In this document: piece by piece, positions 25,585-52,393 of the stretch | How the letters are laid out: the number at the start of each line of letters is the position of its first letter | Position numbering within the stretch: the stretch's first letter is position 1 | Notes under the pieces: model-generated | What the model saw: only the letters and a program-made list of their open reading frames with translations | Told to the model about the DNA's origin: nothing | The model's database searches: none | Translations under genes and position numbers: made by a program | From: Desulfonatronum lacustre DSM 10312 | GTDB lineage: Bacteria > Desulfobacterota > Desulfovibrionia > Desulfovibrionales > Desulfonatronaceae | Assembly: GCF_000519265.1 (NCBI RefSeq) | Contig: NZ_KI912608.1 | Span: forward strand, 2,761,313 to 2,825,312 | Length of the DNA: 64,000 bases | Direction: 5' to 3'

Positions 25585-25740
25585 TCATTCTGTTGTATGG
25601 CTCCGGGCTTGAGGTGGCCGAGCCAAAATCCGGACGGGCCGCGTGGAGCTCCGTTGCCGGATAAACAGTCCACGGGGTGAGAACATGCCCAGGACGAAAT
25701 CCGTTGTCCAGGTATAAGGTGGATCTGCTTTTGACCTTAA

Positions 25741-25887
25741 CAGTTGAAAAATCCCCAATTGCTGCGTCGCTGCAAAAAATTCAAACTCTCACGTATGAAT
25801 AAGTACGCTTCGATCTTAAGTTTTTTTTTGCTCCTTGCACTTGGGGTTTTTGAACGGACTGTGAATAGGGACTTTTTCAGCACTCAG
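25741..25887. mobile_element. palindromic MITE, copy 1
   Basis: Non-coding element of about 147 bp. It has terminal GTTGAAAAA inverted repeats, an inner pair CCCCAA(G/T)TGC / GCACTTGGGG and a central stem GCAAAAAATTCAA / TTAAGTTTTTTTTTGC around ACGTATGA. It begins after TAA. Related copies are at 38408-38555 and 52459-52609. The small open frame through it comes from the repeat sequence and is not taken as a gene. Confidence 0.85.
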
Positions 25888-25966
25888 TCAAAGACCGTAC
25901 TTTTCAAAAACGTACGTATCTGCTCTATTCATCGCGGACGGCAACCATCAACGCAAAGAGAATAAT

Positions 25967-26416
25967 ATGTACGCCATCGCAGTCAACGGTAGCCCTCGCA
26001 AGGGCGGCAACACGGAATTCCTCTTGAATCGCGTCCTCGAACCCCTGGCCAAGGCAGGCTGGGAGACGGAATTAGTCCAGGTCGACGGGCAAAATATCCC
26101 CGGCTCGGTCTACAGAAACATGGGCTCTGGTCGGGACAAGGGCGAGGTGGAAAAGGACGCCGAGGGGCTTGGCAACATGAAGAATCTTGGTCAGGTTATC
26201 GCCTGGCTGGGTCAGGCGATACAACCGCATGTGGGCAGCTTCCCGGCCCTGGCCGTCTGTCCGGAAATCCGGGCCACCCTGCGCATCCCGGACGATCACG
26301 CCATCGGCTACGCCTTGCTCTTCGGACGCCCGGCGGTGCAATACCACCGCCCCGTCAAGCGGAGGCCGGCCAGGGTCAACATGCTTGGGTTAGGAGACCC
26401 TTCAAAATCATTTTGA
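25967..26416 (+). pseudogene. collapsed relic: flavodoxin-fold reductase ends fused to nitroreductase C-terminus
   Basis: 149 codons stay open, but the product is a patchwork. Residues 1-42 match the start of NADPH-dependent FMN reductase/iron-sulfur flavoproteins (VNGSPRKGGNTEFLLNRVLEPL). Residues about 47-85 match the C-terminal end of the same family (VYRNMGSGRDKGEVEKDAEGL, NLGQVIAWL), with the middle 80-100 residues, including the Cys motif, missing. Residues about 95-140 match the C-terminus of a nitroreductase (RIPDDHAIGYALLFGRPAVQY, then RPVKRRPA). Two nested deletions of neighbouring genes would explain it. A functional micro-protein cannot be excluded. Confidence 0.65.
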
Positions 26417-26713
26417 ACGGCCTCCCCATCCCCCTGAACGACATCGCCGGGGCGCCCAGCGCCCCGGCGCTCACCTCAACGCAAAAACTTTCATGGACAC
26501 ACAACCAGCATCATTCTTGCCCGGTTCCTTGAATGTGATTCGCCTCGTTTTTTTGACTCTTCGACCACTCCGCATAATACTGACCTCGGGAGGGGCAAAA
26601 AGGTGGTTTCAACGACTGAGAAGGTTGGTCCTGGGCAGCTAAATGTCATGAAAAGTAAGGCATTGTGCGCGGCCAGGTTTGTGTCCGAATAGGGTTTTGA
26701 CAATCCGTGGCGA
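26417..26713. other. intergenic, no gene seen
   Basis: G+C falls and reading frames are short on both strands. No terminator or promoter recognised with confidence. The right end leads into the conserved recombination-site-like segment at 26714. Confidence 0.5.
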
Positions 26714-26756
26714 GGAGAGGTGGCTTTTTGCGAAGTCAGGATAATCATACTGTTAG
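26714..26756 (+). other. attI-like or shared insertion-site sequence upstream of a gene cassette
   Basis: 43 bp ending in the core-like GTTAGGC (26752-26758). By hand alignment it matches 47085-47127, the segment before another cassette, at about 33 of 43 positions (shared TTTTTGCGA, ATAAT, ACTGTTAG). Sequence left of the G/TT cut lies outside the cassette, so the similarity suggests that both cassettes entered the same kind of site. Confidence 0.55.
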
Positions 26757-26769
26757 GCTGCATAATCAC

Positions 26770-27336
26770 ATGCAAGAACATCTGGCTTCGGCGAACGCGA
26801 GAGCGGCTCAACTGATCTCAATAGCCGAGCAGTTGTTCGGCCCCATGAGCTCACCTTGGACGTACGCTGGAGTCACGTTTCGCGATCAGCCTCCGCATCT
26901 GTACTACTTTCCGGAGGCAACTTCGGTTCAAATCGCATTAAGTCTGCGTGCTGTTGGGGATGATCTGCAGCGAGACTTTCAGCTTTCTCACGAGGTATGT
27001 CATCTCCTGTATCCGTCGATCGACCCTATTCAGCCCGACGAGCCAAGAACAATCGTCCTGAATGAAGGTATATCGGCCTACTTTTCCGTGATTGTCGTCG
27101 CCACTGACTATGGCGACGAAGCTGCGGGGATCGCCCTCGAAAACCTGGCCACGCACTCACCCAATTACTTCAGGGCATTCAAGCTCGTGTTAGCGTTGAT
27201 GCAGCGCGATAGAGACGCAATAAAGAAGTTAAGAGCCATTCAACCGATGATCAATGAGACTGTCACGCAAGACCTGCTTGCAGCGGACCTTGGACTGACG
27301 CAGGAAGAAGCCGAAGATCTGGTTGCAATATGCTGA
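26770..27336 (+). CDS. integron-cassette protein with HExxH metallopeptidase-like motif
   Basis: 188-residue protein of unrecognised family. It contains LSHEVCHLL (about residue 77) and, about 30 residues on, LNEGISAYFS. HExxH followed by a Glu-containing helix is the gluzincin zinc-protease pattern. No signal peptide, so it would be cytoplasmic. ATG at 26770 is preferred (12 bases after the cassette core); in-frame sequence before it crosses the recombination core. The gene fills a cassette that begins with GTTAGGC and ends with an attC site whose GCCTAAC is the exact complement. Confidence 0.6.
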   Translation: MQEHLASANARAAQLISIAEQLFGPMSSPWTYAGVTFRDQPPHLYYFPEATSVQIALSLRAVGDDLQRDFQLSHEVCHLLYPSIDPIQPDEPRTIVLNEGISAYFSVIVVATDYGDEAAGIALENLATHSPNYFRAFKLVLALMQRDRDAIKKLRAIQPMINETVTQDLLAADLGLTQEEAEDLVAIC

Positions 27337-27376
27337 GGTCAACGACATCTAAGGAGTTGATGGCTGCCGCGGTGCC

Positions 27377-27448
27377 GCCTAACAAATCGTTCGAGAGGGA
27401 CGCTACGTCGGCAAGCCGACTTCGCGCCCCTCAACTCAAATGTTCCAC
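27377..27448 (+). other. attC recombination site of the cassette
   Basis: GCCTAAC (27377-27383) is the exact reverse complement of the cassette's leading GTTAGGC. It is followed by an imperfect palindrome (GAGGGACGC with GCGCCCCTC, and GTCGGC-AA-GCCGAC at the tip), then a degenerate right core GTTCCAC (27442). Folded single-strand architecture and position right after the gene are typical of integron attC sites. The right core is non-consensus, suggesting this is the end of the array. Confidence 0.78.
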
Positions 27449-27526
27449 ACCCGAGAACAGCATGTCCCTGAAACTGGATGAACCACCGTTGACACCCGAA
27501 CCCATTCAGATTGAAGGAAGCACCTC

Positions 27527-28009
27527 GTGAAGCCTCTGACTCCCAAAGATGTCCAGGCGGCGCTGGACGCCCTCGGATTGAACATCCGCGTACAACGCTT
27601 CAACGCCTCCACCGCCACGTCGCAGCAAGCCGCTGACGCCGTCGGCACTGAGCTTGGCAGTATCGTCAAGAGCCTCTGCTTCTTCATCGGCGAGGAGCCG
27701 GTCATCGTGCTCGGTTCCGGGGACCAGCGCATGGACGAGCGCAAGATTGCCGCGCTTCGAGGCGTGAGCCGCAAGAGGGTCAGAATGGCCACTGCGGCGC
27801 AGTCGGTGGAAGTGAGCGGCTACGCGCCCGGCGGTGTGCCGCCGTTGGGCCATCGGAACCGGCTGCCGATTTACATTGACGACATGCTGACGCGCTACGA
27901 AACCGTGTACGCGGCCGCGGGCGCGCCTGACGCCATCTTCCCGATCACGTTCAAGACGCTGGTGGAGGCGACCGGCGGCGCGGTGGCGGACATTGCGAAG
28001 AAAGACTGA
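27527..28009 (+). CDS. YbaK/ProX-type aminoacyl-tRNA deacylase
   Basis: 160-residue stand-alone editing domain (INS/YbaK fold) that hydrolyses mischarged aminoacyl-tRNA such as Cys- or Ala-tRNAPro. The segments GTELGSIVKSLCFFIGEEPVIVL (about 42-64), LRGVSRKRVRMA and GGVPPLGH carry the substrate-pocket residues, including the conserved Lys of the IVKSL helix. GTG start at 27527 with GAAGGAAG upstream. It follows the cassette but has no matching attC of its own, so it is not assigned to the array. Confidence 0.85.
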   Translation: MKPLTPKDVQAALDALGLNIRVQRFNASTATSQQAADAVGTELGSIVKSLCFFIGEEPVIVLGSGDQRMDERKIAALRGVSRKRVRMATAAQSVEVSGYAPGGVPPLGHRNRLPIYIDDMLTRYETVYAAAGAPDAIFPITFKTLVEATGGAVADIAKKD

Positions 28010-28211
28010 GGCACGTCGTCCGTTCAACACCCAACGTCATCTTGCCCATCAGATCGACGACATTAAAAAACCGTCAAGGTCATTTGAATGGGGACGCGCT
28101 ACGAGTAGGAGTGCCCCATAGCTGCGTGTCGATAAATCCGAATCCGCCGGCTCGCTTCCGTGTTCGCGGTTGATACGCTGGCCGCTGAGAATGGGAGGAA
28201 CACAGACAATC

Positions 28212-28835
28212 ATGAACATTTCGATCATTCTTGCTCATCCTGACAAGGCAAGCTTCAACCATGCAATCGCGGCGACCGTTGTCAAGCAGATCGAAAGCAA
28301 TGGACACGCCGTGTCTTTTCACGACCTCTATGCGGAGAATTTTGATCCTTTGCTTGTTTGCGGGGAGATTCCGAAGCATGCCGTATTGCCGGAGTCGGTC
28401 AAAAGCCATTGCGAGGAAATCCGACAAGCCGACGGCATTGTTGTCATCCATCCCAACTGGTGGGGGCAGCCCCCGGCAGTCCTGAAGGGCTGGATCGACC
28501 GGGTGATCCGGCCGGGGATTGCTTACGAGTTCCTGGAAGGGGATTCCGGCGAAGGCGTTCCCAGGGGCCTGTTGAAAGCTCAAGTCGCCGTCGTCTTCAA
28601 CACGTCAAACACCACGCCGGAGAGGGAAAGACAGGTCTTTGGCGACCCCCTTGAGACCATCTGGCGAAACTGCGTCTTCGGCCTGTGCGGGGTCGGCGAA
28701 TTTCACCGCCGTACGTTCGGCATGGTCGTGACCAGCACGGAGAGCGAGCGGAAAGCATGGCTTGAAGAGGCAAGATCATTGCTCGACGGGATATTTCCGA
28801 AAACAGCAAGTTCAGATTTGCCTGCTCGGCAATAG
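28212..28835 (+). CDS. NAD(P)H-dependent oxidoreductase, flavodoxin-like fold (MdaB/KefF/WrbA-like)
   Basis: 207 residues. FMN-binding N terminus IILAHPDKASFNHAIA (about 5-20), HPNWWGQPPAVLKGWIDRV (about 80-98, typical of quinone reductases) and GVPRGLLKAQVAVVFNTSNT. Likely a two-electron quinone or electrophile reductase. ATG at 28212 opens the beta-strand of the flavodoxin fold; GGGAGG is 13-18 bases upstream, slightly far. G+C and codon use are less extreme than in the ABC genes to the right. Confidence 0.85.
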   Translation: MNISIILAHPDKASFNHAIAATVVKQIESNGHAVSFHDLYAENFDPLLVCGEIPKHAVLPESVKSHCEEIRQADGIVVIHPNWWGQPPAVLKGWIDRVIRPGIAYEFLEGDSGEGVPRGLLKAQVAVVFNTSNTTPERERQVFGDPLETIWRNCVFGLCGVGEFHRRTFGMVVTSTESERKAWLEEARSLLDGIFPKTASSDLPARQ

Positions 28836-28877
28836 TTCCATCTTTCCGCCGTGCCGGAACCACGGTCAATCCATCGT

Positions 28878-31517
28878 TCATTCATTCCGCAGCAAGACCC
28901 AGGGCCGGGCGGACAGGACCGAGCGCATTCCGGCCAGGCCGCAGCCCAGAACCACCAATAATCCCAGGGCCAGCACCGTCAGCAGGGTGCCGGGGAGAAA
29001 CGTCCAGGGGTCGTCCAGGACGCGGCGCACGAACCACCAGGCAAGGCCCGTGCCCAGTCCGGCGGCCAGGGAGGCGGCCACGCCGCCCAGGAGCAGGAAC
29101 TCCAGCCCCAGGGTGGTGACCACGTCCCGGCGGGTGGCCCCGCAGACCTTGAAGATCGCGGCTTCGTAGCGCCGCCGATCCAGCCCGGCCCGGACCACTC
29201 CGGCCAGCACCACGACCCCGGCCAGCAGGGTCATGGCCGCGATGGCCCGCACGCCCAGGCCGACCTGGTCCGTGACCCTGGCCACGTCTTCCAGGACGTC
29301 CCGGACATCCACGGCCACCACTCGGCTGAAATCCTCGGACAGGGCGGTCAGCAGGGCCGCCCGCCGCTCCTCCGGCGTTTCCGGCGCCAGGGAGACGGTG
29401 GCGATATGCGTGTACGGCGCGCCGTCCAGGATGCCGGGGGAAAAGATGATCGAGTGATTCAGGGCCAAGGATTCCCAGTCCACCTCCCGCAAACAGGTAA
29501 TCTCGGCCTGGATTTCCCGGCCCAGAATGTTCATCATCAGGGTGTCGCCCAGTCCGGCGCTCAGGCCGCGGGCAATGCCCTCGTCCATGCAGACCCGAGC
29601 CGGGCCGCGATAGTCCTCCGGCCACCAGGCCCCGCCTACGATCCGGACGTCTTCCATGGGCCGGGCGGCAAAGCTCACCCCGCGTTCGCCGCGAATGGCC
29701 CATTCCACGGCAGGGTCCCGCAGGGCCTCTTCCGGGGTCAGGCCGCCGATGGCCGTGATTCGACCGCGAATGGATGGTTGATCCTTCCATTCCAGCAGCT
29801 CCGGCCAGGACCGCGCCGTCTCACGCAACGCCTCGACCCGATTCCGGGGAATGTCCACGAAAAAGAAGTCCGGCGCGTTCCGGGGCAGTTGACGGAGGAG
29901 CCGATCCTGAAAAGAGCCGTCCACCAGGGCCACGGTCACCAGCATGGTCAGCCCCAGGCCCAGGGAAAAGATCACGCTGGCGGTCATGGCTCCGGGTCGG
30001 TGCAGGTTGGCCACGGCCTGGCGCACCAGAGGGCCCGCCCAACGGGGACTGTGCCTGGCCCAATGACCACTGATCTTGGCAGCTCCCCATCCGGCGAGCC
30101 GGGCAGCCCCGTAAAACAGCACCACGCTGACCAGGGCGGCGCTGAAAAAAGCGAGCACGGTCCGGCCGTCGTCCACGGCCGCGGCCATCAACCCGGCCAA
30201 AACCAGCCATGTCACGCCGATCATGGCCCGTTCCCGGAAGCGCAAGGGCCGCGGAACGGGTTGGACATATCCACGGAACAGCTCCGCCGGGCGAAACCGC
30301 AGGGCGAGATACAGAGGCCGGAGCACGAAGGCCAGGGTGGTACACAGCCCCAGGATCAGGGCCGTGGCCAGCACTTTAGGGTACAGGCCCAAAACCGCTT
30401 GCAGGCCAAGACCCCGGGCCAGGGCCGCAGCCCCGAGGTTGGCCAGCCCGACGCCCAGGACCAGCCCCGCGAGGCCGCCGAGCAGGGCCATCACCAGGAC
30501 CTGGGTCAGGCAGAAGATGAAGAGGGTCCGGGAGGTGGCTCCCAGGCAACGCATGGTTGCCAGGGTCGTTCGACGGCCCTCGAAATAGGCCTGAACGCTT
30601 CCAGCCACCCCCAACCCGCCGATGAGCAGGGCGGCCAGGCCCACGAGATTGAGGTATTTGGACAGATTTTCAATGGCCCGGGTCAGCCCTCTGGCCGCGG
30701 AGCCGTGCTCCCGGATCTGCCAGGAGGCTTCGGGAAAAGCGGTCTCCAGCTCGCCGCGCACGGTCCGCGCGGCTGCGGTCCGGTCGCCTTCAGGCGGCAA
30801 GGCCAGGCGCACCGCGTACCGGATCAGGCTGCCGGGCTGGACCAGTCCGGTGGCCTCCAGGTCGTCCAGGGAAATCATCAACCGGGGCCCCAGGCCGAAG
30901 AATCCCGCGGCCTTGTCCGGTTCCCGCTCCAGCACGTCCACCACCCGGAAGGCCGCATCCCCAACGACTATCAGGTCTCCCACCCCGGCCCCGATCCGCG
31001 CCAGCAGCCCGGCTTCGGCCACGGCCATGGGCTCGGCTTCCGGTTCGTGTTCCCTTGTGGCCAACACGGCCTGGAGGTCTGCCCCGGAACGGAGCCGGGC
31101 TTGGCCGTACAATGGATAGCCCTCATCCACGGCCTTGAGTTCGGTCAGGGTCGAGGCCCCGCCCGGTCCACGAGCCATGGCCCGGAGGGAGGCGACCCGG
31201 GACGTTGCCCCGAATGCCCGGAACGCTTCCACGGCAATGTCCGGAATGGGCGCATGGGCCTGGCGCAGTTCCAGGTCCCCGCCGAGAATGGCCCGGGTAT
31301 TGTTCCGGATCCCGGCGTCCAGGGCCGCGGACAAGGTCCCGATCCCGGCCACGGCCCCTACGCCGAGGACCAGACAGAGCAGAAAGATCCCGAACCCCTT
31401 GGGCCGGTTGCGGATCTCCCGTAAGGCCAGGCCCAAGGTGGTGCTCAGCGGAGTCTCCGTTTCCACGGGATTCTCTTCATCCGCCTTGCCAAGGATGTTT
31501 CGAGCAATGTCGGTCAT
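28878..31517 (-). CDS. ybbP: ABC transporter permease, FtsX/YbbP type
   Basis: About 879 residues with two FtsX-like cores. An N-terminal TM is near residues 30-55, a group of helices near 290-420, another group near 440-490, and the last three-helix bundle at 760-870, separated by large periplasmic loops. The size and the two MacB-like cores match the YbbP family, which pairs with YbbA. ATG at 31517 overlaps the ATPase stop (31514) by 4 bases. The E. coli tesA // ybbA-ybbP arrangement is reproduced here. Function is unproven; roles in lipid or lipoprotein extraction have been suggested for related transporters. Confidence 0.8.
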   Translation of the reverse strand: MTDIARNILGKADEENPVETETPLSTTLGLALREIRNRPKGFGIFLLCLVLGVGAVAGIGTLSAALDAGIRNNTRAILGGDLELRQAHAPIPDIAVEAFRAFGATSRVASLRAMARGPGGASTLTELKAVDEGYPLYGQARLRSGADLQAVLATREHEPEAEPMAVAEAGLLARIGAGVGDLIVVGDAAFRVVDVLEREPDKAAGFFGLGPRLMISLDDLEATGLVQPGSLIRYAVRLALPPEGDRTAAARTVRGELETAFPEASWQIREHGSAARGLTRAIENLSKYLNLVGLAALLIGGLGVAGSVQAYFEGRRTTLATMRCLGATSRTLFIFCLTQVLVMALLGGLAGLVLGVGLANLGAAALARGLGLQAVLGLYPKVLATALILGLCTTLAFVLRPLYLALRFRPAELFRGYVQPVPRPLRFRERAMIGVTWLVLAGLMAAAVDDGRTVLAFFSAALVSVVLFYGAARLAGWGAAKISGHWARHSPRWAGPLVRQAVANLHRPGAMTASVIFSLGLGLTMLVTVALVDGSFQDRLLRQLPRNAPDFFFVDIPRNRVEALRETARSWPELLEWKDQPSIRGRITAIGGLTPEEALRDPAVEWAIRGERGVSFAARPMEDVRIVGGAWWPEDYRGPARVCMDEGIARGLSAGLGDTLMMNILGREIQAEITCLREVDWESLALNHSIIFSPGILDGAPYTHIATVSLAPETPEERRAALLTALSEDFSRVVAVDVRDVLEDVARVTDQVGLGVRAIAAMTLLAGVVVLAGVVRAGLDRRRYEAAIFKVCGATRRDVVTTLGLEFLLLGGVAASLAAGLGTGLAWWFVRRVLDDPWTFLPGTLLTVLALGLLVVLGCGLAGMRSVLSARPWVLLRNE

Positions 31518-32233: not shown

Positions 32234-32905
32234 CACATTCTCGCCTTCCTGGTGGTGTTCATGACCTTCGCAACATCGCATACGCTTTCCGCTCCATCCA
32301 CCGGCCACGCCGCTCCCGGCAACGAGGCCGTGCTCCTGGCCTTCGGCGACAGTCTTACCGCCGGATTCGGGCTGGCCGAGCAGGACGCCTTCCCCGCCGT
32401 GCTCGAAGCCCGCCTGCGCGGGCAAGGCTATCCCGTCCGGGTGGTCAACGCCGGGGCTTCCGGGGATACCACGGCCGACGGCTTGGATCGGCTGGAATGG
32501 GTGCTGGCCGGGTTATCGGCGGATCGCCAAATTTTGGCAATTCTTGAATTAGGCGCCAACGACGCCCTGCGCGGCGTAAACCCGGACATCACCCGCCGCA
32601 ATCTTTCCTCCATCCTGAAAATTTTCCAGGAACGCGGCATCCCGGTCTTCCTGGCCGGCATGCTCTCGCCCCTGAACCTGGGCCGGGACTTCACCGCGCG
32701 GTTCAATGCCATCTTTCCAGACCTGGCCGAAACATTCGACCTGCCCCTCTACCCCTTCTTCCTGGAAGGCGTCGTCGGCAACCCGGCCCTGAACCTCGAC
32801 GACGGCATCCATCCCAACGAGCAGGGCATCATCGTCATCGCGGAGAACATCCTGCCCCTGATCGCCGACTTCCTGCGGACCCACGATGTTGAGCCCGTTC
32901 CATAG
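32195..32905 (+). CDS. tesA: GDSL-family arylesterase / acyl-CoA thioesterase I, TesA-like
   Basis: Periplasmic SGNH hydrolase. Signal peptide (residues about 10-40), block I FGDSLTAGFGL with nucleophile Ser, block II Gly in GASGDTTADGL, block III GANDALRG and block V DDGIHPN with the catalytic Asp/His. 236 residues, as expected for TesA. A second in-frame ATG at 32207 is equally plausible. It is divergent from and overlaps the YbbA gene, the same neighbourhood as in enterobacteria. Confidence 0.88.
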   Translation: MILNMTSLVFRPHHILAFLVVFMTFATSHTLSAPSTGHAAPGNEAVLLAFGDSLTAGFGLAEQDAFPAVLEARLRGQGYPVRVVNAGASGDTTADGLDRLEWVLAGLSADRQILAILELGANDALRGVNPDITRRNLSSILKIFQERGIPVFLAGMLSPLNLGRDFTARFNAIFPDLAETFDLPLYPFFLEGVVGNPALNLDDGIHPNEQGIIVIAENILPLIADFLRTHDVEPVP

Positions 32906-39902: not shown

Positions 39903-40152
39903 CAGGGCAATTTTGTTCTCACCAAATTTTTCCTGCAAAGACGGCTGGTTTGCCCTGTTTGGAACGGCTCGAAACTCCATCATCGGCCTCGTACCATCAA
40001 GCCGTTGCGCTTTAATAACAAGATGTTGTGCTCGCTGCGATGGGCAACGGCTTGATGAACGATTCCTGGTTCAGTCAGACAGTCGATCCGTCCCAAACAG
40101 GGCAAACCAGCCTCATAACTTCAGGTAGTTACGTGAGAACAAATTTGCCCTG
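39903..40152. mobile_element. 250-bp MITE with 20-bp terminal inverted repeats and 10-bp target duplication
   Basis: Ends are CAGGGCAATTTTGTTCTCAC and its complement with one mismatch (40133-40152). Inside are further nested inverted repeats (GGCTGGTTTGCCCTGTTTGG / CCAAACAGGGCAAACCAGCC; CATCAAGCCGTTGC / GCAACGGCTTGATG). GAGAGGGGCT occurs directly on both sides (39893-39902 and 40153-40162), a perfect 10-bp target-site duplication as made by IS4/IS1634-type transposases. No transposase inside, so it is non-autonomous. The right end supplies the last codons of the adjacent gene. Confidence 0.9.
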
Positions 40153-46359: not shown

Positions 46360-47084
46360 GGGGTTCTTCCTTTTCAGTGCGATGGGCGATTGGCTGCGAG
46401 GCGAAAGCTTTTGGTAATTGCTCAAAAGGGCCGGGCAAACCCCCAAATTGCCTCTGCCCCTGGATTCCCGCCTGCGCGGGAATGACTGAAATGGCACGTT
46501 CTCTCAAGCTCGTCATGCCCGCGCAGGCGGGAATCCAGGTCATTTTGAGAAGTTACAGCTTTCGCCATGAACATGCCGGTTTCCGGAGGGGAAGCGGGAG
46601 TTCAATGTAATCATGCATCATCAGAAGCCGCAAGCCCCGCGACAAGTTCATACGGACTTTTGATTCCGATGCAACGGTTCTTGACTGATGGCGAAACGAT
46701 CAGGAGCCAGATACGATTGCTTCCACCCCAAATGTCGTTTAAAGGCTTCAACATTTGGTACGTTATCGGTTTCCTGAAGCCAGTACCGGATTTGACGATG
46801 CGTGATAACGTTCCGGTGGGACACTGGCCTTCAAGACCTTCGCCCATTCGGCAAAAGTGATCACGGTGTATCCATCATTTCCTCCGAGGTTGGCTTTATG
46901 CCCCGCTCTTGTGGTGAGTATTTGGCTGCCGCATAAAGCTGACTTCAGCACGAAGCATGAAGCTGACCTCGGAGTCAAGATGGATTTGGCAGACACAACT
47001 CAAGGCGCTGAAATAACGTGGAAAATTCGGACTATTCTTTCAAAAAATACTTGCCGAATCAGCAGGTGTTAAGGCCGGGAATTT
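46360..47084. other. intergenic region with a pair of palindromic repeats; no gene supported
   Basis: Contains inverted copies of a widespread 27-bp palindromic unit at 46460-46486 and 46512-46538 (CTGGATTCCCGC ... / GTCATGCCCGC ...), which together can form a large stem upstream of the ammonia-lyase operon. From about 46560 the G+C drops. Short frames on both strands (46567-46860 +, 46611-46847 -, 46763-46996 -) show no recognisable family. Confidence 0.6.
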
Positions 47085-47127
47085 GGAGGGGCGGATTTTT
47101 GCGAGTTCCGTATAATAACACTGTTAG
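47085..47127 (+). other. attI-like or shared insertion-site sequence before the second cassette array
   Basis: Matches 26714-26756 (TTTTTGCGA, TATAAT-like, ACTGTTAG) and ends in the core GTTAGAC (47123-47129) that starts the next cassette. No integrase gene is nearby. Confidence 0.55.
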
Positions 47128-47145
47128 ACAGGGGAGAAACAAGAA

Positions 47146-48195
47146 ATGCCGAATGTTCCGACGTTCATCAAGCCGTCTCGGACTGTGGACGAGGTTCAAC
47201 CGCTGTCACAGGCCGTCACAATCTTGAACAGCTTGCGTGGCGTCGAAACATCGGTGGTTCTTGACCTGAATATCCTAAACATGATGCGCAGTGTGATGTC
47301 GGGGGACAGCACACTGGACGAAGAGAATCTCTCTGGCCTTGTCGATTTCTTCAACAGCAATCCCGTTAGCATCACGCCGGGCTTCGCGTTCGGAGAAACT
47401 GACAAGGAGTATGTCACGGGACTCCGTGCTGACTACGAGAAGTTTATGTCGCGGTATTGTCCCGGATACATCGACACTCCTAACTGCACGCACGATTTCG
47501 GGAAACGAGCCAGGAGCAGAGAGTTCAAGAGGCTTGGCCGAGGCGACCGATACACTCTCGTAATAATGTACACGGCCATGTTGGCGATCCAAGTGATCAG
47601 CAAGGAGTCCCAGGGGGCGTCGCCGGAGCAAAAGTTCTCGGCATACTTGGATTTCATGAGAACCGACGCAGATATGGTTTCTGCCATTGAGGCTGAGGTG
47701 GCCAAGTACTGGTTCTTCGACAGAACCCGCGTCAGAGACGAGTCCTTCAGGTCTCGATGCAAAATAATACGCGACAACTTCAATAAAGGCGGAAAAGGGC
47801 GTGGGCGGCTGCAGTACACGTTGAACTACGCGAGAGATTTGGCCTATTACCGCTTCACGGCGCTTCAGGATGGCAAGCCGTTAGATGGCGTCGTTCAGGA
47901 CTGCTGGCTCGTGACCGCTGATCAAGCTCTCATAGAAGTCGCGAAGTCGATTTACTTCTATCCTTGCGAGGGTGAGGCCGCGAAGTTTGTTGCGCTAGCG
48001 CGTAACGAGGAGCAAGAGCACAGTGATTACTGGATATACTGTGACGAACTTTTTCAAAGCGCTGTGGTAAGGCGGCAGAGGTCGGGGAAAGCTCTCGCCC
48101 CGATGACGAAGAAGTCTTGGGAAAAGTTGTTTTCATCCCAGCGGCGCCTCGAAAATAAGGTCCTCGAATATTGGCCTGAAGAAGAAAATGTCTAA
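47146..48195 (+). CDS. integron-cassette protein, unknown; weak PIN-like features
   Basis: 349 residues, no family recognised with confidence. Features seen: VVLDLNILNMM near residue 38 and CWLVTADQALIEVA near residue 255, spacing and style reminiscent of PIN-like nucleases, plus many basic residues in the middle (KRARSREFKRLGRGDRY). No signal peptide or membrane segment. The ATG is 17 bases after the cassette core and the stop lies inside the GTCTAAC of its attC, leaving almost no free DNA, which is typical of cassettes. Confidence 0.6.
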   Translation: MPNVPTFIKPSRTVDEVQPLSQAVTILNSLRGVETSVVLDLNILNMMRSVMSGDSTLDEENLSGLVDFFNSNPVSITPGFAFGETDKEYVTGLRADYEKFMSRYCPGYIDTPNCTHDFGKRARSREFKRLGRGDRYTLVIMYTAMLAIQVISKESQGASPEQKFSAYLDFMRTDADMVSAIEAEVAKYWFFDRTRVRDESFRSRCKIIRDNFNKGGKGRGRLQYTLNYARDLAYYRFTALQDGKPLDGVVQDCWLVTADQALIEVAKSIYFYPCEGEAAKFVALARNEEQEHSDYWIYCDELFQSAVVRRQRSGKALAPMTKKSWEKLFSSQRRLENKVLEYWPEEENV

Positions 48196-48252
48196 CAAAG
48201 CCATGGAGCGCGACGGCTGCTTCGCAGCCGCGGCTCATGGCTGGCGTTGTGC
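48190..48252 (+). other. attC site of the first cassette in the 47-kb array
   Basis: GTCTAAC (48190-48196) is the exact complement of the cassette's opening GTTAGAC (47123). Inner arms AGCCATGGAGC / GCTCATGGCT and CGGCTGC-TTC-GCAGCCG form a long imperfect stem with unpaired bases, then the right core GTTGTGC (48246-48252), which opens the next cassette. Confidence 0.85.
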
Positions 48253-48302
48253 TTAAAACAAAAGTTTGACAATAATCTTAAATTTAAGGAACATCACAAA
48301 AT

Positions 48303-49847
48303 ATGTTGAAGCTAAAAGATATTTATGTCGGTGACGTTGATGCTAAGAATGAGTTAATTGAAGCATCAGATAGTGAAGCACTAAGATTTATCAAATCATT
48401 TACTGTCAATGATGGCATAGATATAGATGACTACTTCAGCGGAAAAATGTTTTTTATTACAGGATTAAAAGGGACAGGAAAAACAGCATTCCTGAGGTAT
48501 CTTTCGCTATTGGCAAAAAGAAAACATATGAACTCCTTGTTTGTACTATTTAAAAGTAACATTAAGGAAACAGACAGAGCCAAGTTAAGTAAAAATTCTG
48601 ATACAATTGTTATAGAGGAAAAGGGAAGCATAAAATATATTCAAGATTATGAAAAAATTTGGATGCTTTTTTTACACAAAACAATACTTAATCTTTTAGA
48701 AAAAACAGATCAACCTGTATTTATACATGATGATAATTGGAAGAAATATAAATATGCTGTTTTAGGGGCTGATTATGGAAACAAGGCATTAGGTGTACTT
48801 CGCTATTTCCCAACAATATCAAAGGGAATGATCAATTTTTTTATTCCAGAAGAATACAAAGATTACTTTCAAATTGATTTAGGGGAAAATAATGCAGGTC
48901 AGGTAAATTTTTCATTACTCGTTAATACAATAAATGAATTTTTCTCAAATCTTACACCATCCGAAGGAAAAGTTTTTCTTTTTGTGGATGAATTAGAATT
49001 GAATTTAGGAAGCCAAGAGCAATACAAAAGAGATATACTCTTAATTCGGGATCTAATTATCGCGGTTGAACATTTAAATAGAGAGATGGCTATTAAAAAT
49101 TTCCCTGTCAAAATTTTTTGTGCTGCAAGAAGGGAGGTCATTACAGCTGTAGATGGTATCGGAAAAGAAATTGCTAAACCAACCGAAGACTTTGGTGTTG
49201 AGTTGATTTGGAATTCAAGAATTGGTAGCGAGAACGAATCATTTGATCACCCATTAATCCAGTTAATCGCAAAAAAAATAAATGTTTCTGAAGAAATTAA
49301 AGGAATTCAATCTGATTTTGAATGTGAAGAATTAATATATAAATATTTCCCCCAATCTATCAATGGTATTCACATTACCAAATACTTGTTAGATCGATCA
49401 TGGTTCCGTCCAAGAGATTTTTCGAGAATGTTAAGACAGATTACGAAACAATATGGAAAAATGGATAAGGGGTTTACACAAGCCTGTTTCGAAGGAACGC
49501 AAAAAGCCTATGCTACAAGTAGTTGGACAGAAATCGCTGAAGAATTAGCGGCTAAATATAAAAAGGGAACGATTCGATCTGTAGAAAAACTATTCAGTGG
49601 TGTACCAAAACAATTTTCGTTTGAGGATATTCAAAAAATTGCTAAAACCAAATCAAAACACAGTAGGGATTTAGATGAATTTATCGATTCAAGAAACCTT
49701 TCCGAGCTTTTAGCAGATTTGTTTCAAATCGGATTTATTGGCAATTCAAACCCTTTCCGATTTCATTTTAGGGGGGATGCAAATCTTAATCTTGAAGCCG
49801 ATATGGTAGTGCATCGAGCTCTTTGGCCCTATTTTTCGATTATTTAA
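48303..49847 (+). CDS. A+T-rich P-loop ATPase in an integron cassette (Sll1717-family-like)
   Basis: 514 residues. Walker A GLKGTGKTAFL near residues 57-67, Walker B VFLFVDELELN near 223-233 and a C-terminal helical region (RPRDFSRMLRQITKQYGK, about 377). The arrangement resembles the Sll1717-type P-loop ATPases often found in defence or mobile islands; this family call is tentative. The gene is strikingly A+T-rich compared with everything to its left (about one-third G+C by eye), showing foreign origin. It has AAGGAA before the ATG and its own cassette ends. Confidence 0.65.
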   Translation: MLKLKDIYVGDVDAKNELIEASDSEALRFIKSFTVNDGIDIDDYFSGKMFFITGLKGTGKTAFLRYLSLLAKRKHMNSLFVLFKSNIKETDRAKLSKNSDTIVIEEKGSIKYIQDYEKIWMLFLHKTILNLLEKTDQPVFIHDDNWKKYKYAVLGADYGNKALGVLRYFPTISKGMINFFIPEEYKDYFQIDLGENNAGQVNFSLLVNTINEFFSNLTPSEGKVFLFVDELELNLGSQEQYKRDILLIRDLIIAVEHLNREMAIKNFPVKIFCAARREVITAVDGIGKEIAKPTEDFGVELIWNSRIGSENESFDHPLIQLIAKKINVSEEIKGIQSDFECEELIYKYFPQSINGIHITKYLLDRSWFRPRDFSRMLRQITKQYGKMDKGFTQACFEGTQKAYATSSWTEIAEELAAKYKKGTIRSVEKLFSGVPKQFSFEDIQKIAKTKSKHSRDLDEFIDSRNLSELLADLFQIGFIGNSNPFRFHFRGDANLNLEADMVVHRALWPYFSII

Positions 49848-49942
49848 TTGAAAATTATCCTTGTCCAAAGTTTTGTAGCCAATTGAGTACATGTGTTATC
49901 TATCCGCAGAGTTAGAAAATTAATATACTATCGGACAAAATT

Positions 49943-50002
49943 GTACAACAAACGGGTCAACGCGGACTCGCTTAAGCTCGCCGGTTACCCTACACGTTAG
50001 CG
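49943..50002 (+). other. attC site of the ATPase cassette
   Basis: GTACAAC (49943-49949) matches the complement of the cassette's leading GTTGTGC at 6 of 7 positions. Arms GGGTCAACGCGG / CCGGTTACCC pair with two bulged bases around a GCTTAAGC tip. The right core GTTAGCG (49996-50002) opens the following unit. Confidence 0.8.
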
Positions 50003-50024
50003 CTCAACATACAGGGAGTCTTGG

Positions 50025-50960
50025 TTGATCGATTTCATTCTGGAAAATAAAGAATGGTTATTCTCCGGTGCAGGAGTGACTGCCATATTGGTAGTTGGAG
50101 GCTGGCTATTTAAGCATTCAAGATCGACGCCAACTGCATCCCAGCCAAACCTAACGTCAGCGGTGCGGGTCGCTCTCGTTCAAGCCCAGCTTCCACCTGC
50201 AAAAAACATTCTACCGAACTCCGAGGTCGCGAGCATCGTTATGAGGTTTAATCAGGTTCTCGATCTGATGAACGAGAAGAGAACTTATGGTAAATACACC
50301 ATTGCTGGCTTGGCACAGCTGATGAAAATTCACTCCGTTGGCGAGCTGGAAAGTGTGTTTCTTGGTAGTCAAGAACCATCATTTGAATTTATTGACCATT
50401 TCTGCGATACATTTGGGGTTAATAGGAACTGGCTTATCGAGGGAAAGAGTGCACCTTTTACAGGGCTTGAAGAAACACATTACGATCCGCTGGAATATTT
50501 GGAAGAAATCGAGACTCTGGCGCCAAACAGAATCTACTTCATTAGGTCGGCATCGGAGATGGGGGAAGTCTTTCTGCTACTTAAGTTTTTCGATCATAAG
50601 TACAGGATTGTTGACCGAGTCTGGCACATTAGTGACCATGTTGGCGCTGGCGGTCAAAGTCAGATATTCGGAATGTATCGGCTAATATTGGCGCTTCAAA
50701 AGAGTGGACTCAACACCACCTGTGGCGGGAGAATTCTGCCGAAAGATAAGTTCAACGATCTTCTCAGTGGCAAGGTGTTTCCAGGATCGATAATCGATTT
50801 TCCAGCGCAAGAAAATCCATGGTGGGATGATTTCGTTGATGTTCACCATAAATATCCGATTTCATCAAGCTATGAGTCCCGGTACGGAAAGGGGTTCATG
50901 GCCGCCCAATCAATAGTTCGCTGGAAACTAAAGGAGAAGGGCAAAAAGGGACATCCATGA
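50025..50960 (+). CDS. membrane-anchored protein with XRE-like helix-turn-helix; probable third cassette gene with altered end
   Basis: 311 residues. One transmembrane helix (residues about 12-29), a low-complexity Ser/Pro/Thr stretch, then an XRE-like DNA-binding region (YTIAGLAQLMKIHSVGELESVF, ending FGVNRNWLIEG, about 88-143). The C-terminal half is unrecognised. TTG start at 50025 with CAGGGAG upstream. The cassette core ahead of it (GTTAGCG) has no matching CGCTAAC after the gene; instead the last codons (GKKGHP) come from a dispersed repeat starting at 50939, so the original 3' end and attC seem lost. Confidence 0.6.
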   Translation: MIDFILENKEWLFSGAGVTAILVVGGWLFKHSRSTPTASQPNLTSAVRVALVQAQLPPAKNILPNSEVASIVMRFNQVLDLMNEKRTYGKYTIAGLAQLMKIHSVGELESVFLGSQEPSFEFIDHFCDTFGVNRNWLIEGKSAPFTGLEETHYDPLEYLEEIETLAPNRIYFIRSASEMGEVFLLLKFFDHKYRIVDRVWHISDHVGAGGQSQIFGMYRLILALQKSGLNTTCGGRILPKDKFNDLLSGKVFPGSIIDFPAQENPWWDDFVDVHHKYPISSSYESRYGKGFMAAQSIVRWKLKEKGKKGHP

Positions 50961-51212: not shown

Positions 51213-51373
51213 TGGCAAGTGCCATTCGCATAGGCAAAAAGGGCAAAAAGGGACATCCATGATAAGCAAGTCAAAAGGGGAAAAAAGGGACAGGCTAAAT
51301 ATGCTTGACAGGCGCGGATATTCACGTTTACTTTCACTTTCACCTGCCAACTCAAGACCTCCCGGAGGAGAGC

Positions 51374-52297
51374 ATGGGACGCATAGCCAGATTTGTACGA
51401 GATGACCGACCTACCATCTATCACGTCATGTCCAGAACGGCCTTGGACGGCTTTCCATTGCAGGACGTCGAGAAGGACCGCCTCATGGCCATTGTGGCCA
51501 GGCTTTGCAAATTCTATTTTGTGGATTTGCTTGGGTTTTGCCTGATGGGCAATCATTTTCATCTGGTGGTCAGGATGCACACCGAGGAAGCGGCTACGGA
51601 TGCGGAAATCGTGAAGCGATTCAAGAAGCAGTTCGGGGAGGATGCCGTAATCTTGCCGCACCAAGTACAGGACTATCGGCGGCGGCTGGTTAATTTGGGG
51701 GCCTTCATGAAGGATATCAAGCAGGGTTTCACCCGGTATTTCAACAAACGCAGAAACAGAAAAGGCTTTTTCTGGGGCGATCGGTTCAAGAGTCTGATTG
51801 TCCAAGAGGGCGCCAGCCTGGTCAATTTGCTGGCCTATGTGGACCTTAATCCCGTCCGGGCCGGTTTGGTGCAGAAGCCCGAGGACTACCGCTGGTCCGG
51901 CCTGGGATATCTGGTGCAGCGAGGGAACCGGGACGGTCTGCTTGATCTGGACCTGGGTTTGAAGGAGTGGAATGAGCTTGAGCCGAAGGAGATCGTCCGA
52001 AAATATCGACAGTTCGTCTATGAAACCGGAGCTATGGACACCGGCAAGGGCAAGCAGCTCAATCCGGAAATTGTCAAACGCGAACGGAAGAAGGGCTACA
52101 AGCTAAGCCGCACCGACGTCTTCCGCCACCGCTGTCGATATTTTACTGATTCCGGCATCATCGGCTCCAAAGAGTTCGTGTCCGAGGTGTTCGACGGGGT
52201 AAAGCACCTGCTGGATTCCAAGGATGAGAGGAGGTTCACGCCGGTTGGCGGGATGGATGGGGTGTATTCGATGAAGCGGTTGGGGGCTGGGGGGTAA
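51374..52297 (+). CDS. REP-associated tyrosine transposase (RAYT, Y1 transposase), intact
   Basis: 307 residues. Y1 transposase core: YHVMSRTALDG (about 20-30), GFCLMGNHFHLVVRM with the HUH pair (about 54-68) and the catalytic Tyr in GFTRYFNKRRNRKGFFWGDRFKS (about 117), followed by LLAYVDLNPVRAGLV. The C-terminal extension is basic. GGAGGAG precedes the ATG at 51374. A 110-bp copy of its upstream region and first 14 codons is found at 61735-61844. RAYTs are domesticated relatives of IS200/IS605 transposases linked to REP-type palindromes. Confidence 0.88.
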   Translation: MGRIARFVRDDRPTIYHVMSRTALDGFPLQDVEKDRLMAIVARLCKFYFVDLLGFCLMGNHFHLVVRMHTEEAATDAEIVKRFKKQFGEDAVILPHQVQDYRRRLVNLGAFMKDIKQGFTRYFNKRRNRKGFFWGDRFKSLIVQEGASLVNLLAYVDLNPVRAGLVQKPEDYRWSGLGYLVQRGNRDGLLDLDLGLKEWNELEPKEIVRKYRQFVYETGAMDTGKGKQLNPEIVKRERKKGYKLSRTDVFRHRCRYFTDSGIIGSKEFVSEVFDGVKHLLDSKDERRFTPVGGMDGVYSMKRLGAGG

Positions 52298-52393
52298 TTG
52301 TTATCAGCTATTCGTTGCTTGGGAAGAGCAGGAAGGGACAGACTCAACTCTTTACTCTAAGATTCCCTCTGCTGAGAACTGACTGCACTGCCA

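What the first reader, a model, noticed from the sequence alone, without database searches (positions are those of the whole stretch)
47085..47127. The two cassette loci share a 43-bp upstream sequence, a possible attI or secondary attachment site
26714-26756 and 47085-47127 agree at about 33 of 43 positions, with shared TTTTTGCGA, ATAAT and ACTGTTAG, although this DNA lies outside the cassettes. Two independent insertions at random sites would not share it. It could be a duplicated attI, a preferred secondary site, or a conserved cassette promoter.
Basis: partly seen in the sequence, partly recalled or inferred. Interest (0 to 1): 0.62.

Follow-up and report, generated by a model that had tools for sequence, protein, structure and literature searches.

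The report
Dispersed integron attI sites, integrase lost
The two matching 43-base stretches are docking sites where a bacterial gene-capture system (an integron) inserts genes; this genome carries about nine such sites, each holding different genes, although its own capture enzyme gene is broken or gone.

Summary
In detail: 34 of 43 bases match, and the next best place in the window matches 26. The motif is the integron attachment site (attI) of this bacterial lineage. Own genome: 9 copies with up to 3 mismatches, control 0, plus one more diverged copy. In sister genomes the same site lies about 250 bp from a divergent intI scoring above the integron-integrase cut-off, the classical layout. 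The own genome has no intI above the cut-off; its best hits are XerC and XerD. The 47-kb site keeps a broken intI, then two attC-ended cassettes. The 26.7-kb site is a diverged attI with one cassette and no recognisable intI, where a sister species keeps a truncated intI. At five loci shared with sister species the first cassette differs. In one sister genome, 5 of 8 located attI sites hold the same gene-less cassette first, up to 98% identical where leaders are 64%: cassettes move among dispersed attI sites, presumably by an integrase acting in trans. A promoter reading is not supported; ATAAT sits where the attI L box should be. A new variant of a known kind.

The parts
47096..47123 (+). attI core at 47 kb; crossover G^TT between 47123 and 47124. 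ATAATAAC / ACT / GTTAGAC reads as L box / spacer / R box.
   Evidence: same core beside intI in sister genomes. L/R box naming rests on recalled attI1.
46671..47095 (+). integron leader shared with the other type A copies; holds repeated GCATAAAGCTGACYTC-type motifs
46613..46875 (-). intI pseudogene: 5' part (about codons 1-73) joined to the last ~57 bp by an internal deletion of about 1.16 kb, with frameshifts and stops; ends ...GIKSPYELVAGLAASDDA*
47124..48246 (+). cassette 1: ORF 47146-48195 (349 aa, no Pfam or PADLOC match)
48190..48246 (-). attC of cassette 1; bottom strand folds better than all 200 shuffles, z -4.8
48247..49996 (+). cassette 2 (about 33% GC): ORF 48303-49847 (514 aa, weak P-loop ATPase matches below cut-off); attC 49943-49996 by eye
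49997..50960 (+). possible further cassette or array end: ORF 50025-50960 (311 aa, no family); from 50939 the DNA is again shared with sister genome G004
26725..26752 (+). attI core at 26.7 kb (type B variant); crossover between 26752 and 26753
26753..27441 (+). single cassette: ORF 26770-27336 (188 aa, no family above cut-off); attC 27377-27441; the bases after it (TTCCAC) read as right flank
   Evidence: bottom strand z -2.8
25643..28878 (.). interval that differs from sister genome G005 at the same place, where G005 has an attI with a truncated intI (codons 1-323)

Best explanation
The shared 43 bp is the attI site of a chromosomal integron family special to this genus (relatives elsewhere in the order). 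The ancestral genomes carried several copies of the platform intI-leader-attI at different places. An integrase cut attI at G^TT and inserted cassettes there; the two window loci are two such platforms. Their own integrase genes have since decayed (47 kb: internal deletion plus frameshifts; 26.7 kb: no recognisable trace), leaving attI with its last cassettes. While an active integrase existed somewhere in the cell, it most likely served all attI copies in trans. Shown by computation: attI identity, its linkage to intI in sister species, the decay, and cassette turnover at shared loci. Inferred: the trans action and the timing of integrase loss.
For: Copy number: 9 copies at <=3 mismatches, control 0; a tenth at about 3690213 with a weak core score of 17.6, above the best shuffled score of -0.7. 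intI linkage: G005 C4, G005 C23 and G008 C9 have intI divergent from the site, intI start about 250 bp from the crossover; in G006 C18 an intact intI has a core-like sequence (score 30.3, TG^TT altered) upstream. intI remnants at 5 of the 9 own copies (L021, L022, L023, L026, L030). No intI over cut-off in the own single-contig genome. Conservation: 22-bp core differs 5-8% between copies, spacer about 35%. Cassettes: attC follows at 8 of 9. Shared loci with unlike first cassettes, 5 of 5 compared. The same gene-less cassette is first at 5 of 8 located G005 attI sites; in 10 of 10 pairs of these five its first 60 bases are more alike than the leaders, best case over 172 bases 168/172 against leaders 122/192.
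Against: No recombination was measured. The 26.7-kb copy shares little beyond about 45 bp, has no intI trace (tblastn), and rests on type B relatives (L024, L103) and position. Trans action could be replaced by several integrases that died recently at each locus; G005 still has one intI above cut-off (5' end interrupted by a repeat) and a truncated one. The leader tree is poorly resolved (11 of 15 branches open). Cassettes could also be swapped by homologous recombination. Most relatives are drafts, so their site counts are lower bounds. Core conservation may date from when intI was intact.
Confidence: 0.9

Rival explanations
1. Secondary genomic sites (attG-like): an integrase inserted cassettes off target at ordinary sequences that happen to resemble each other.
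For: The own genome has no intI over cut-off, and CALIN elements are proposed to arise partly this way (PMC8618304, passages seen).
Against: The six type A copies share about 200 bp or more of leader, five carry intI remnants, and the same core flanks intI in sister genomes. Off-target sites would not share these.
Confidence: 0.06
2. Conserved promoter for the cassettes, with ATAAT as -10 box, kept by selection for expression.
For: An ATAAT/TATAAT string is conserved, and integrons do have a Pc promoter near attI (general knowledge; legend of PMC8618304 seen).
Against: The scan finds no + strand sigma-70 pair in 46850-47200; the one + strand hit in 26480-26830 lies at 26553-26581, 144 bp before the core. 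Conservation peaks at the crossover.
Confidence: 0.03
3. Dispersed copies arose by recent duplication of one platform together with its first cassette, not by cassette insertion at many attI sites.
For: L076 and L078 of G005 share 810 bp at 95%.
Against: L076 and L078 have different first cassettes; the gene-less cassette is more alike than the leaders in 10 of 10 pairs; own copies sit at different loci, five of them with counterparts in sister genomes.
Confidence: 0.08

Closest known systems
Sedentary chromosomal integron attI (intI-attI-cassettes)
   Same: Divergent intI about 250 bp away in sister genomes, G^TT crossover, attC-ended cassettes downstream
   Different: Here about nine copies in one chromosome and no working intI
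CALIN / SALIN (attC sites without integrase)
   Same: attC cassettes with no intI above cut-off in the genome
   Different: These keep a recognisable attI and often an intI stump, so their origin by integrase loss can be read directly
Xanthomonas integron with inactivated intI (PMC12444791, abstract and passages seen)
   Same: Ancestral platform, repeated intI decay, CALINs elsewhere in the genome
   Different: There intI sits at one locus (ilvD); here the attI platform itself is at many loci
Gene-less (ORF-less) cassettes of Vibrio (PMC11014356, abstract and passages seen)
   Same: Cassette without ORF between other cassettes
   Different: Here one about 175-bp gene-less cassette recurs as first cassette at several attI sites, with GTTCCCG in place of GTTRRRY
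attG secondary sites
   Same: Cassette junction at G^TT outside a complete integron
   Different: These sites have leader and intI remnants; attG described here from passages of PMC12444791 and recall

Membership tests
integron attI site | lies beside a divergent intI | tested here: met
   Met in sister genomes G005 C4, G005 C23, G008 C9; at 47 kb only a pseudogene; at 26.7 kb no trace
integron attI site | cassettes begin exactly at a G^TT in the site | tested here: met
   Homology of three shared-locus pairs ends at offset 1-3 from the crossover (L030/L086, L022/L087, L023/L077), of L024/L103 at offset 1; attC-bearing cassette follows at 8 of 9 own copies
integron attI site | L and R core boxes | tested here: inconclusive
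   ATAATAAC-ACT-GTTAGAC resembles attI1 only as recalled; no alignment to attI1 was run
integron attI site | integrase-dependent recombination at the site | not testable with these tools
   needs an assay
complete integron | intact intI in the same genome | tested here: not met
   no match over the TIGR02249 cut-off in the 3.76 Mb single contig; best hits are XerD (over cut-off) and an XerC/XerD-type recombinase (over the NF001399 cut-off only)
CALIN | at least two attC sites without intI | tested here: met
   47 kb: two attC sites (48190-48246 folded; 49943-49996 by eye). 26.7 kb has one attC only
attG secondary site | no platform sequence around the junction | tested here: not met
   leader at six copies, intI remnants at five
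sigma-70 promoter | TTGACA-like and TATAAT-like pair using the ATAAT | tested here: not met

The most novel reading that the evidence does not exclude
A distributed integron: one integrase gene served about nine attI sites scattered over the chromosome, so cassettes were exchanged among many small arrays; the attI sites can outlive the integrase and keep being filled whenever an integrase is present in the cell or returns by transfer.
Probability: 0.45. Interest if true: 0.7.

Novelty: new variant of a known kind. Interest (0 to 1): 0.5.

Why it matters
CALIN elements are common and their origin is argued over (off-target insertion, intI loss, rearrangement; PMC8618304 passages). Here the attI and often an intI stump are still readable at many loci in one genome, so integrase loss can be shown locus by locus, and sister species give a natural test of whether an integrase works in trans on remote attI sites. 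If it does, a genome's cassette pool is spread over many expression sites instead of one array.

Tried and rejected
Promoter scan: no sigma-70 pair on ATAAT. Plasmids: no match to 46650-47130. Rfam search of 26000-55000: two chance-like hits below gathering score, no attC family. Empty-site search for the 47-kb platform: its upstream flank is held only by G004 of 7 other genus genomes, apart from an 80-90-bp dispersed repeat at its end, and the downstream flank is multi-copy, so no empty site was found. Leader tree: mostly unresolved; used only to say the own copies are not one clean clade. The heuristic attC finder also lists many false hairpins inside ORFs; I kept only those beside an ORF end with R'' and R' boxes, by eye. 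A shared one-base frameshift of the 47-kb intI and its G004 counterpart suggests the gene was dead before the split, but a GTG start could bypass it, so I did not rely on it. An early idea that CTGTTCC in G005 marked empty sites was wrong: it is the gene-less cassette. Papers: searches for multiple, orphan or remnant attI gave 0 papers or only general integron papers; that is the basis for calling this not seen in print. I did not look for attI around the other IntI types (G006 C94, G009, G014, G017, G047, G050).

Full report
Observation. The two 43-base stretches match at 34 of 43 positions; nothing else in the window comes near (26 of 43). The exact pattern has 2 matches in the window against none expected and 9 in the 3.76 Mb single-contig genome at up to 3 mismatches, reversed control 0.

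Two classes. Six copies (2529439, 465384, 1045503, 2808408 = window 47096, 3491312 and 1099176) share a leader of at least about 200 bp, in five of them about 400 bp or more. Two others (2788037 = window 26725 and 3159243) have a variant core, TTTTTGCGAAGTCAGGATAA; the second has an orthologous copy in G005 (L103) whose leader still shows the GCATAAAGCTGAC repeats of the first class. The ninth, 2685747 (-), is the most diverged and has no cassette that I could find. A tenth at about 3690213 was found through the gene-less cassette beside it.

Identity. In sister genomes the site sits beside an integron integrase. G005 C4: intI 98436-99359 (-), 352.5 bits, site at 100297 (+). G008 C9: intI 385383-386312 (+), 365.7 bits, site at 384657-384687 (-). 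G005 C23: partial intI and site at 40054. tblastn with the G008 and G006 proteins (483 and 493 aa) places intI codon 1 about 250 bp from the crossover and finds decayed 5' intI pieces at five own copies. The own genome has no intI above the TIGR02249 cut-off; its two best hits are XerD, over its cut-off, and an XerC/XerD-type recombinase over the NF001399 cut-off only. Of 61 genomes (own and relatives), 9 have an intI over the cut-off and 8 have the site at up to 2 mismatches. G008 has a second attI, leader 75% identical over 390 columns, with no intI found beside it.

Window loci. At 47 kb the - strand 46613-46875 holds the intI stump: the 5' part joins the last 57 bp directly (reference positions -701 and -1863), and its frames are broken. 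Then come the attI core 47096-47123, cassette 1 (47124-48246) and cassette 2 (48247-49996). The bottom strand of the first attC folds at z -4.8. At 26.7 kb the core 26725-26752 is followed by one cassette (26753-27441), attC z -2.8. In G005 the same neighbours flank an attI with intI codons 1-323, so the 26.7-kb cassette stands where a sister keeps a half-decayed integron.

Core. Between own type A copies the last 22 bp differ by 7.6% on average, the spacer at -111 to -140 by 35%, and a second conserved block at -141 to -200 by 13.7%. I read ATAATAAC-ACT-GTTAGAC as L box, spacer and R box by comparison with attI1 as recalled. The ATAAT is therefore more likely an integrase box than a -10 box, and no promoter pair uses it.

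Cassette turnover. Five own loci have counterparts in sister genomes: 47 kb/G004 C3, 465 kb/G004 C20, 1045 kb/G005 C4 and G001 C1, 26.7 kb/G005 C23, 3159 kb/G005 C1. In 5 of 5 the DNA just after the crossover differs. At 47 kb the upstream flank is 94.6% identical over 1949 columns and the downstream flank 98.6% over 652, yet nothing aligns between offsets +3 and +3815; the downstream flank is a multi-copy sequence. For 465 kb/G004 C20 the G004 contig ends about 1 kb past the site.

Trans action. A gene-less cassette of about 175 bp (TTCCCGCGACGC..., shorter forms exist) is first at 5 of 8 located G005 attI sites (L077, L078, L079, L103, L125; not L076, L080, L081), at one in G004 and one in G000. 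Its first 60 bases are more alike than the leaders in 10 of 10 pairs; over 172 bases L078 and L125 agree at 168/172 while their leaders agree at 122/192. In pairs with the shorter forms the 172-base figure falls to 0.74-0.81. So the cassette moved between platforms. Of these five G005 platforms tblastn found intI sequence at two (L077, L079; L103 and L125 were not in that search, but L103's leader was compared), one interrupted near its 5' end by a dispersed repeat, the other truncated. An integrase acting in trans is the simplest reading; several integrases that died recently is the other.

Cargo. First cassettes of other own copies include a type II restriction enzyme with a methyltransferase (PADLOC PDLC03512, E 5.2e-73, with several MTase_II models), two ATPases matching PDC-S59 (E 4.1e-16 for the first cassette at 465 kb and 1.8e-28 for the second ORF at 3491 kb), a RES-domain protein and a DUF4145/HEPN-like protein. 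The window cassettes themselves match no defence model.

How platforms spread is open. In G003 an integron lies where this window has none (about 32240-32263), flanked by 50-bp direct repeats at 86% identity; G005 C23 has 65-bp repeats at 75%. Repeats of this kind at two of the 24 loci given to (one of them, L083, too short to test) are a hint only; other loci there gave other repeats or none.

Organism. The one named relative is a Desulfovibrionales MAG (GEM2.Bin26, REDL01000058.1), which is G001 contig C1 by length and matched sequence. A finer name for the own genome was not tested.

Literature seen. PMC2426708 (abstract and passages): nearly a third of intI genes are pseudogenes, and 20% of bacteria carry more than one. 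PMC8618304 (passages): proposed origins of CALINs. PMC12444791 (abstract and passages): intI decay in Xanthomonas. PMC9229058 (passages): CALINs and single orphan cassettes in Shewanella. [quoted passage not shown] Searches for multiple or orphan attI gave nothing.

Noticed in passing
L077, L078, L081, L103, L125 (G005); L021 offset +3828; L123:8240; L124:9702: A gene-less cassette of about 175 bp starting with the palindrome GTTCCCGCGACGCNTCCGCGTCGCGGGAAC recurs after attI and attC sites; 15 matches in 4 of 61 genomes at up to 3 mismatches, 11 of them in G005. Its R box GTTCCCG departs from GTTRRRY.
   Followed up: partly
window 32240-32263: Empty site: sister genome G003 has a 7.25-kb stretch with an integron inserted here, flanked by 50-bp direct repeats (86%).
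   Followed up: partly
window 46920-46985 and the same place in other copies: Second conserved block in the leader with two or three GCATAAAGCTGACYTC-type repeats in both orientations near the intI start; possibly an operator or integrase-binding region.
   Followed up: no
window 25740-25870 and many loci: Dispersed repeat of about 150 bp (AACAGTCCGTTGAAAAACYCCCAATTGCTGCG...) found in many loci here; one copy interrupts intI of G005 C4.
   Followed up: no
window 46414-46500 and 51278-52300: REP-like dispersed repeat (about 87 bp, many copies in the genus) before the 47-kb stump, and a multi-copy gene that looks like a REP-associated transposase (named by eye) after the array.
   Followed up: no
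L091, L092 (G043), L090 (G027): attI-like cores in another family of the order, in genomes without any intI match at 1e-25; one of them (G043) is a single contig.
   Followed up: no
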